From Endozoicomonas sp. GU-1 (GTDB taxonomy: Bacteria; Pseudomonadota; Gammaproteobacteria; Pseudomonadales; Endozoicomonadaceae), in contig NZ_CP114771.1 of the NCBI RefSeq assembly GCF_027366395.1, positions 3,472,001-3,536,000 on the forward strand: a stretch of 64,000 nucleotides of DNA. Reading direction: 5' to 3'. Every line of letters begins with the position of its first letter. Positions within the stretch are counted from its first letter, which is position 1. Positions 39,762-40,367 of this stretch are shown in pieces. The position numbers and the translations under genes are program-made. A model generated the notes under the pieces. It was not told the origin of the DNA, searched no databases, and saw only the letters and a list, made by a program, of their open reading frames with translations.

Positions 39762-39848
39762 TGGTGCCCAGGAGAAGACTCGAACTTCCACGACCTTGCA
39801 GTCACTGGCACCTGAAGCCAGCGCGTCTACCAATTCCGCCACCTGGGC
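39762..39848 (-). tRNA. tRNA-Leu (anticodon CAG), second copy
   Basis: The same structure and CCA end as the copy at 39642, 33 bases upstream of it in transcription order. Its anticodon stem (CTGG with CCAG) pairs perfectly. Its 5' half and upstream sequence are repeated twice more further upstream. Confidence 0.92.
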
Positions 39849-40301
39849 ATCGTCAAAAATGTTGCTGAACTTTATTGCACTTTGGCGCAAAAAACAAGGC
39901 GATTTTTTAGCCGGAGGTTTTAGGATTTATTTTAGGAAACGACACATGTCACCTACCTTAACAAACCTGCAACCCTTTGTTTTTCAAGGACAAAAGTCCG
40001 AAAACAAAACGACGAACCGTTAAACACACACCAGCACCTGAAGCCAGCGCGTCTACCAATTCCGCCACCTGGGCATCGTCAAAAATTTCGCTGAACTCTA
40101 TTGAACTTTCGTTCAAAAAACAAGACTATTTTTTAGCCAGAGGTTTTAGGACTCTTTTTAGGAAACGACAACTGTCATTTATCAGAAAAAATCTTCAACC
40201 TTTTGTTTTGCAAGGACAAAAGTCCGAAAACAAAACGACGCATGGTTTAATTCACACCATGCACCTGAAGCTAGCGCACCTACCAATTCCGCCACCTGGG
40301 C
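39809..40301 (-). repeat. Tandem ~226-bp units each holding a tRNA-Leu 5' half
   Basis: The sequence from the tRNA anticodon stem through the upstream flank recurs with a period of 226-227 bases, beginning at 39809, 40035 and 40262. Only the first unit joins an intact tRNA; the other two stop after TTCAGGTGC, just past the anticodon. Shared spacer marks are GTCAAAAAT, GGTTTTAGGA and GGACAAAAGTCC (a small hairpin). The 5' halves are 40033-40074 and 40261-40301. Confidence 0.85.
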
Positions 40302-40338
40302 CTTGCCATCGCTGTCCAACATCTCAGCGATGCGGCGC

Positions 40339-40367
40339 ATATTAGAGATCACTGGATGGACTGTCAA
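40339..40367 (-). promoter_or_regulatory. Strong sigma70 promoter of the tRNA-Leu cluster
   Basis: On the minus strand, TTGACA, 17 bases, TAATAT, followed by a GC-rich discriminator typical of stringently controlled stable RNA genes. It lies about 30 bases before the outermost tRNA 5' half, so one transcript would carry two half tRNAs and then two intact ones. Confidence 0.85.

What the first reader, a model, noticed from the sequence alone, without database searches (positions are those of the whole stretch)
39809..40367. tRNA-Leu locus with two dead 5' halves behind a strong promoter
Two intact tRNA-Leu(CAG) genes are preceded by two ~226-bp tandem units whose tRNA stops just after the anticodon. 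A TTGACA-N17-TAATAT promoter with a GC-rich discriminator lies before the outermost half. The repeated breakpoint, always after CAGGTGC, looks like the crossover of an integrase using the anticodon loop. One transcript would release tRNA 5' halves as well as tRNAs. This is either a fossil of several integrations or a source of half-tRNA RNA.
Basis: partly seen in the sequence, partly recalled or inferred. Interest (0 to 1): 0.72.

Follow-up and report, generated by a model that had tools for sequence, protein, structure and literature searches.

The report
Stacked prophages that replace split tRNA-Leu
In an Endozoicomonas-like bacterium, two related prophages appear to have cut a leucine tRNA gene one after the other, each leaving a dead front half behind the host promoter and bringing whole replacement tRNA genes that the same host promoter now probably drives.

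Summary
In detail: two intact tRNA-Leu(CAG) genes lie behind two tandem ~226-bp units, each a tRNA 5' half cut after CAGGTGC plus a ~185-bp spacer, behind one promoter. The units are best read as nested attL junctions of two related prophages. Four relatives have promoter-tRNA-tRNA with no units. The spacers look like one integrase-binding arm of the phage attachment site: TCCTAAAA occurs 7 times in 145 kb, all in the two spacers or at the far prophage ends. The missing 3' halves lie at those ends, 88 and 117 kb away. Crossover in the anticodon loop does not rebuild the split tRNA; instead the phage carries two whole tRNA-Leu(CAG) genes beside its attachment site, with no promoter of their own found, so the host promoter probably drives them. 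This matches published tRNA-dependent lysogeny (actinophages, 2024), with differences: a tRNA pair, probable promoter capture, reuse of a phage tRNA as the next attachment site, another host group. Open points: one stem mismatch between matching halves, and an older integrase remnant at the far end. The 'half-tRNA source' idea is untested; the spacer may fold as conserved RNA (moderate covariation). New variant of a known kind.

The parts
40339..40367 (-). promoter of the host tRNA-Leu locus, TTGACA-N17-TAATAT, followed by a GC-rich stretch
   Evidence: corresponding site in relatives with and without the insert
40261..40301 (-). dead 5' half 1 of the host tRNA-Leu(CAG), split by the first prophage (X)
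40075..40260 (-). P' arm (spacer) of prophage X attL; arm-type motifs TCCTAAAA at 40144-40151 and 40156-40163
40034..40074 (-). dead 5' half 2, front of the first tRNA brought by prophage X, split by prophage Y
39849..40033 (-). P' arm (spacer) of prophage Y attL; TCCTAAAA at 39918-39925 and 39930-39937
39762..39848 (-). replacement tRNA-Leu(CAG) 1 brought by prophage Y
39642..39728 (-). replacement tRNA-Leu(CAG) 2 brought by prophage Y
39586..39603 (.). terminator-like hairpin between the tRNA pair and int; the T-rich tail is better on the integrase strand
   Evidence: 2 found, shuffles mean 1.5
38499..39554 (+). tyrosine integrase of prophage Y
   Evidence: Pfam PF00589 4.2e-7; phrog_1 9.1e-28
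1..39641 (.). part of prophage Y next to the integrase (repressor 31786-32454, Erf-like 33610-34572, RecE-like 34573-36132, SSB 36132-36623, antirepressor 37005-38270); taken to go on outside the window to genome position about 3,423,940; the stretch 1-30000 was not annotated

Best explanation
Two related temperate phages integrated one after the other into the only tRNA-Leu(CAG) locus found. The phage attachment site reads: P arm with TCCTAAAA sites - short core CTAGC-TTCAGGT-GCT - about 185 bp of P' arm with TCCTAAAA sites - two complete tRNA-Leu(CAG) genes - terminator - integrase. The tyrosine integrase recombines within the anticodon loop of a tRNA-Leu gene. The target's 5' half stays behind the host promoter, the 3' half goes to the far end of the prophage, and the split gene is not rebuilt. 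The phage's own tRNA pair now lies downstream of the host promoter and replaces the lost gene. Phage X did this to a tRNA of the host locus, then phage Y to the first tRNA of X; hence two 5' halves, two spacers, and Y's tRNA pair nearest the integrase. Shown by sequence: difference from the loci without the insert, junctions at both ends, arm motifs, whole tRNAs beside the integrase. Inferred: the order of events, that transcription from the host promoter feeds the pair, and that the pair is needed for a viable lysogen.
For: Loci with promoter-tRNA-tRNA and no units: G003, G008, G011 (printed; G011 cut in its second tRNA by the contig end) and G007 (positions only). Half-spacer-tRNA in 5 of 12 same-genus genomes incl. 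own: G000, G001, G006, G009, G010; behind the tRNA pair the integrase frame is uninterrupted in G000, G006, G009, broken in G001, and the contig ends there in G010. IMG/VR contigs L096 and L097 carry spacer + tRNA pair + int; L097 begins inside the core; L096 looks the same as the G009 contig, so it is not independent. Own genome: arm + 3' half + whole tRNA + second integrase at about 3,423.8 kb, and arm + lone 3' half at about 3,394.9 kb. TCCTAAAA: 7 of 7 copies in 145 kb lie in the spacers or these arms (about 1.9 expected in all). Arm + 3' half junctions also in G009 (1 contig) and G010 (2 contigs). Each of 2 halves joined to each of 2 distant 3' halves: tRNA-Leu(CAG) in 4 of 4; half + its own spacer: 0 of 2. 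By eye, the leader/trailer stem GACGAT/ATCGTT fits half 2 with the 3,423-kb end and none of the other three joins. X and Y share about 17 kb in the same order on the integrase side and short segments at the right end.
Against: Half 2 has stem CTGGC while the matching 3' half has GCTAG: one substitution, or conversion from the neighbouring tRNA, must be assumed. Of 5 arm + 3' half junctions seen (2 in the own genome, 1 in G009, 2 in G010), only the one at 3,423 kb is followed by a second tRNA; the other 4 are followed by an integrase remnant, so the targets there had an older prophage behind them, and no junction with a plain host 3' side was seen. No arm junction was found in G001 or G006. G001 has a second half-spacer-tRNA copy without tRNA 2 or integrase. 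Prophage Y (about 88 kb) and X (about 29 kb) differ greatly in length; no free phage or attP circle was seen. No transcript, excision or essentiality data exist here.
Confidence: 0.84

Rival explanations
1. The tandem units arose by unequal homologous recombination among tRNA copies or from decayed insertions, without a second phage integrating into a phage-borne tRNA.
For: Half 2 (CTGGC) does not perfectly match the 3' half at the 3,423-kb end (GCTAG). Homologous prophages side by side would allow such exchange. G001 holds two half-spacer copies on one contig, the second without integrase.
Against: A second uninterrupted integrase frame and two arm-3' half junctions are present where nested integration predicts them. 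The two spacers differ by 17%; win2 is nearest to G009 (0.96) and win1 to L097 (0.91), though L097 is nearly as near to win2 (0.90).
Confidence: 0.12
2. The spacer is a functional structured RNA (with or without the tRNA 5' half) made from the host promoter, for instance a processing or antitermination leader or a regulatory RNA of the prophage. This does not exclude the main reading.
For: Consensus fold over 8 spacers: 94.6% of cells paired against 46-55% when slid; 6 pairs with changes on both sides (9 of 500 shuffles reach this); covariation score 0.195 against 0.137 shuffled (0 of 500). Single-sequence z-scores -2.98 (win1) and -3.16 (G010).
Against: win2 alone has z -1.11, with 28 of 200 shuffles folding as well. 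The sequences are closely related, so the shuffle control is lenient, and the structure was derived from the same alignment. The best conserved stretch holds the arm motifs. In 39500-40500 no Rfam family besides tRNA.
Confidence: 0.3
3. Ordinary tRNA-targeting prophage that rebuilds the tRNA 3' end; the two halves are meaningless leftovers.
For: This is the typical arrangement for tRNA-targeting tyrosine integrases (PMC10865867, passage of introduction), and an integrase fragment near tRNA-Leu(GAG) in G010 has an intact tRNA beside it.
Against: At both attL junctions here half + spacer gives no tRNA (0 of 2), while whole tRNAs lie about 185 bp further on.
Confidence: 0.03

Closest known systems
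tRNA-dependent lysogeny of actinobacteriophages (Fionnbharth, Gabriela, Gaia and others; PMC10865867: abstract, passages and discussion section seen)
   Different: There the Fionnbharth tRNA has its own strong promoter and overlaps gene 37; here a tRNA pair lies about 185 bp from the core in the direction of host transcription with no promoter found, and a phage tRNA seems to have served as the next attB. Requirement for lysogeny is proved there, not here.
Mesorhizobium phage Lo5R7ANS-like prophages in Sinorhizobium meliloti (PMC11476347: passages seen)
   Same: A prophage splits host tRNA-Leu(UAG) in the middle of the gene and carries a tRNA-Leu(UAG); a proteobacterial case in print.
   Different: Another isoacceptor and host class; no stacking is described in the passages seen.
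Lactobacillus prophage Lj965 (named in the discussion of PMC10865867; original not seen)
   Same: tRNA not rebuilt, cognate tRNA in the prophage.
   Different: Different host and phage; details not seen.
Prophages integrating into prophages in E. coli (PMC8112680; title and start of abstract in a search listing only)
   Same: Later prophages use sites inside earlier ones.
   Different: Replacement tRNA genes are not mentioned in what the listing shows.

Membership tests
tRNA-dependent lysogeny | tyrosine-type integrase beside the attachment site | tested here: met
   PF00589, phrog_1, 38499-39554
tRNA-dependent lysogeny | attB overlaps a host tRNA gene | tested here: met
   halves end in the anticodon stem-loop; loci without the insert in relatives
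tRNA-dependent lysogeny | short common core, so the tRNA is not rebuilt at the junction | tested here: met
   about 15 bp shared (CTAGCTTCAGGTGCT, by eye); half + own spacer gives no tRNA in 2 of 2
[quoted passage not shown]
   a whole tRNA-Leu(CAG) pair behind the spacer in 5 of 5 half-spacer genomes (G000, G001, G006, G009, G010), by ARAGORN in the window, by sequence in the others; the second copy in G001 has one tRNA
tRNA-dependent lysogeny | arm-type sites flank the attP core (reported for Fionnbharth) | tested here: met
   TCCTAAAA on both sides; binding itself not tested
tRNA-dependent lysogeny | split host tRNA is essential or unique | tested here: inconclusive
   no other CAG locus found: other Leu tRNAs are TAA, CAA, GAG, TAG; the family search scored 150 of 262 candidates and did not list the second tRNA of the window; tRNA-Leu(TAG) might also read CUG (recalled)
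tRNA-dependent lysogeny | phage tRNA is required for lysogeny | not testable with these tools
   needs genetics
canonical tRNA-rebuilding prophage | attP carries the 3' end of the tRNA so that one junction is a whole tRNA | tested here: not met

The most novel reading that the evidence does not exclude
An integration-switched tRNA system: the phage tRNA pair has no promoter of its own and is turned on only when integration places it behind the promoter of the gene just destroyed, so tRNA rescue is tied to correct integration. Because each phage brings a fresh target tRNA, integrations can stack. Some phages (Y, G009, G001, L097) carry pairs with re-paired anticodon stems (CTGGC/GCCAG and CCAGC/GCTGG instead of CTAGC/GCTAG), which may spare them from the integrase, while the structured spacer RNA helps to free the tRNAs. 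Against the sparing part: the dead halves of G001 (CCAGC) and half 2 here (CTGGC) carry such stems themselves.
Probability: 0.4. Interest if true: 0.72.

Novelty: new variant of a known kind. Interest (0 to 1): 0.52.

Why it matters
tRNA-dependent lysogeny was named in 2024 from actinophages, and its authors ask how prevalent it is outside them. This locus is a sequence-level case in an Endozoicomonas-like (gammaproteobacterial, recalled) host with relatives at several stages: no insert, single, stacked, decayed. It suggests that host-promoter capture can stand in for a phage-borne promoter, and it explains tandem half-tRNA relics that might be dismissed as noise.

Tried and rejected
Rejected: assembly artefact (spacers 83% identical; single units in other assemblies). 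Rejected: rebuilding at attL (0 of 2). The far ends of the L096 and L097 contigs were fetched to find the other attachment site; none was seen there. A degenerate viral-contig pattern found 0; two further patterns found only the two contigs already known. The DNA search of phage records gave 168 records, 0 covering 80% of the query; of the 15 rows listed, those with annotation under the match name tRNA-Leu or nothing. The integrase has 38 phage records, all below 60% identity. Rfam on 39500-40500 found only tRNA. Parts of three other integrase loci (L077, L079, L087, of the loci listed) showed no half-tRNA repeat; L087 has two different whole tRNA-Pro genes. Considered but not proved: half-tRNA as a regulatory RNA.

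Literature: tRNA-dependent lysogeny, 18 papers listed; prophage + tRNA-Leu + anticodon loop + attP + integrase, 2; Endozoicomonas + prophage + tRNA, 11; disrupted or intact tRNA gene terms, 2; tandem-prophage terms, 15 listed of 55; promoterless or host tRNA promoter terms, 1. The titles and abstract starts listed show no tRNA pair beside attP with promoter capture or stacking. Three papers were opened: PMC10865867 (abstract, passages, discussion), PMC12429752 (passages; it reports that its phiLM21-like prophages do rebuild the tRNA), PMC11476347 (passages).

Full report
What is there. On the minus strand the window reads: promoter TTGACA-N17-TAATAT (40367-40339), a tRNA-Leu 5' half (40301-40261), a 186-bp spacer, a second 5' half (40074-40034), a 185-bp spacer, two whole tRNA-Leu(CAG) genes (39848-39762, 39728-39642), a terminator-like hairpin, and a tyrosine integrase gene on the other strand (38499-39554). 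The window is 3,472,001-3,536,000 of a one-contig 6.09-Mb genome. The host is Endozoicomonas-like: the 5 named loci with this integrase are two of Endozoicomonas acroporae Acr-14, two of Endozoicomonas MAGs and one titled Salinisphaera sp. G21_0. Other Leu tRNAs found in the genome are TAA, CAA, GAG and TAG (8 stretches with long-arm candidates and two earlier loci were read). CAG was found only at this locus and its displaced pieces.

Loci without the insert. Of 12 same-genus genomes including this one, 5 have half-spacer-tRNA (G000, G001, G006, G009, G010); 4 have promoter-tRNA-tRNA with nothing between (G003, G008 and G011 printed, G011 cut by a contig end in its second tRNA; G007 by positions only); G002 has promoter-tRNA-tRNA followed by a small integrase remnant; G004 has only a tRNA piece at a contig end and G005 no match to this locus among the rows listed. 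The promoter site is recognisable in the same-genus loci printed with and without the insert, with TAATAT or TATTAT as second box. In the insert-bearing loci the whole tRNAs stand next to an integrase: uninterrupted in G000, G006 and G009, broken in G001, contig end in G010. G001 has a second half-spacer-tRNA copy on the same contig without tRNA 2 and integrase. Two IMG/VR contigs show spacer, tRNA pair and integrase; one starts inside the core, the other looks the same as the G009 contig.

The spacer looks like a phage attachment arm. TCCTAAAA occurs 7 times in 145 kb of this region, all on one strand: two in each spacer, two at the end near 3,424.0 kb and one at the end near 3,394.96 kb; about 1.9 are expected by a third-order model for the whole 145 kb. 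An integrase fragment at a contig end near tRNA-Leu(GAG) in G010 has a similar stretch (GTCGTTCCCCAAAA, GGCCAAAA) between an intact tRNA and itself, which would be the canonical order. Binding by the integrase is not shown.

The other ends. 88 kb away, at about 3,423.8 kb, an arm and core are followed by a 3' half, a whole tRNA-Leu(CAG) and a second uninterrupted integrase frame; at about 3,394.9 kb another arm is followed by a 3' half and an integrase remnant. The two prophages share about 17 kb in the same order on the integrase side, at roughly 85-94% identity over most of it, and short segments at their right ends. Joining halves with the distant 3' halves gives tRNA-Leu(CAG) in 4 of 4 combinations, while each half with its own spacer gives none (0 of 2). 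The pairing therefore cannot be told from tRNA calling alone, but by eye the leader/trailer stem GACGAT/ATCGTT fits half 2 with the 3,423-kb end. This is what nested integration predicts: host half 1 - X arm - X tRNA half 2 - Y arm - Y tRNA pair - int Y - ... - 3' half of X tRNA - X tRNA 2 - int X - ... - 3' half.

What does not fit smoothly. Half 2 carries stem CTGGC where GCTAG would want CTAGC (a G-U pair remains possible); one substitution or conversion from the adjacent tRNA is assumed. Of 5 arm + 3' half junctions seen (own genome 2, G009 1, G010 2), 4 are followed by an integrase remnant and only one by a second tRNA, so an older prophage probably lay behind the target in those cases; no junction with a plain host 3' side was seen, and none at all in G001 or G006. 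These points led me to lower the confidence from 0.87 to 0.84.

Mechanism. The integrase is taken to cross over in the 7-nt anticodon loop. The common core is about 15 bp, so attL does not rebuild a tRNA. The phage supplies two whole tRNA-Leu(CAG) genes about 185 bp inside attL, in the host's direction of transcription. No consensus promoter was found in the spacers or arm regions scanned, while the host promoter is the only promoter-like site found in each of the four stretches that include it; the stretch at the 3,423-kb end gave none. I infer that the host promoter feeds the phage pair; consensus scans do not exclude a weak or phage-specific promoter. A pair would suit a host locus with two genes, as in four relatives: integration into the first would strand the second.

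Spacer RNA. Eight spacers (two of them nearly identical) fold to a shared structure: 94.6% of cells paired, 6 pairs with changes on both sides, covariation score 0.195 against 0.137 shuffled, slid controls 46-55% paired. Single folds are strong for win1 and G010 (z -2.98, -3.16) but not for win2 (z -1.11). This is moderate support for an RNA role such as tRNA processing, and it is not proof.

Known context. PMC10865867 (abstract, passages, discussion) defines tRNA-dependent lysogeny; the authors suspect wider use and name Lj965. PMC11476347 (passages) reports a split tRNA-Leu(UAG) with a prophage tRNA-Leu(UAG) in Sinorhizobium. The present locus meets the sequence-level features that could be decided; uniqueness of the host tRNA is inconclusive and the genetic requirement is untested. 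What appears new, within the searches, is the tRNA pair beside attP with probable host-promoter capture, the reuse of a phage tRNA as the next attachment site, and the host group.

Noticed in passing
own genome 3,395,850-3,395,918 (L016); G006 5,710,090 (L110): A further degenerate tRNA-Leu 3' end with similar flanks in two genomes, inside or beside prophage X; perhaps the relic of an older integration.
   Followed up: partly
own genome 3,393,397-3,394,770 and 3,397,835-3,399,208: A 1,374-bp perfect inverted repeat (perhaps an insertion element) on both sides of the right end of prophage X.
   Followed up: no
L093 (G010:C131): An integrase fragment of the same kind near an intact tRNA-Leu(GAG), with a like arm between them: a possible canonical ancestor arrangement.
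   Followed up: partly
window tRNAs against L018, L019, L020, L021, L097: Phage tRNA pairs come in two kinds: anticodon stems CTAGC/GCTAG as in the host, or compensated CTGGC/GCCAG and CCAGC/GCTGG; might affect use as attB.
   Followed up: no
L035 (G012:C7): Five tandem tRNA-Leu genes of the same type in a family member.
   Followed up: no
L125 (own genome about 2,250,468-2,250,556): ARAGORN calls an 89-nt tRNA-Gly(GCC), longer than usual.
   Followed up: no
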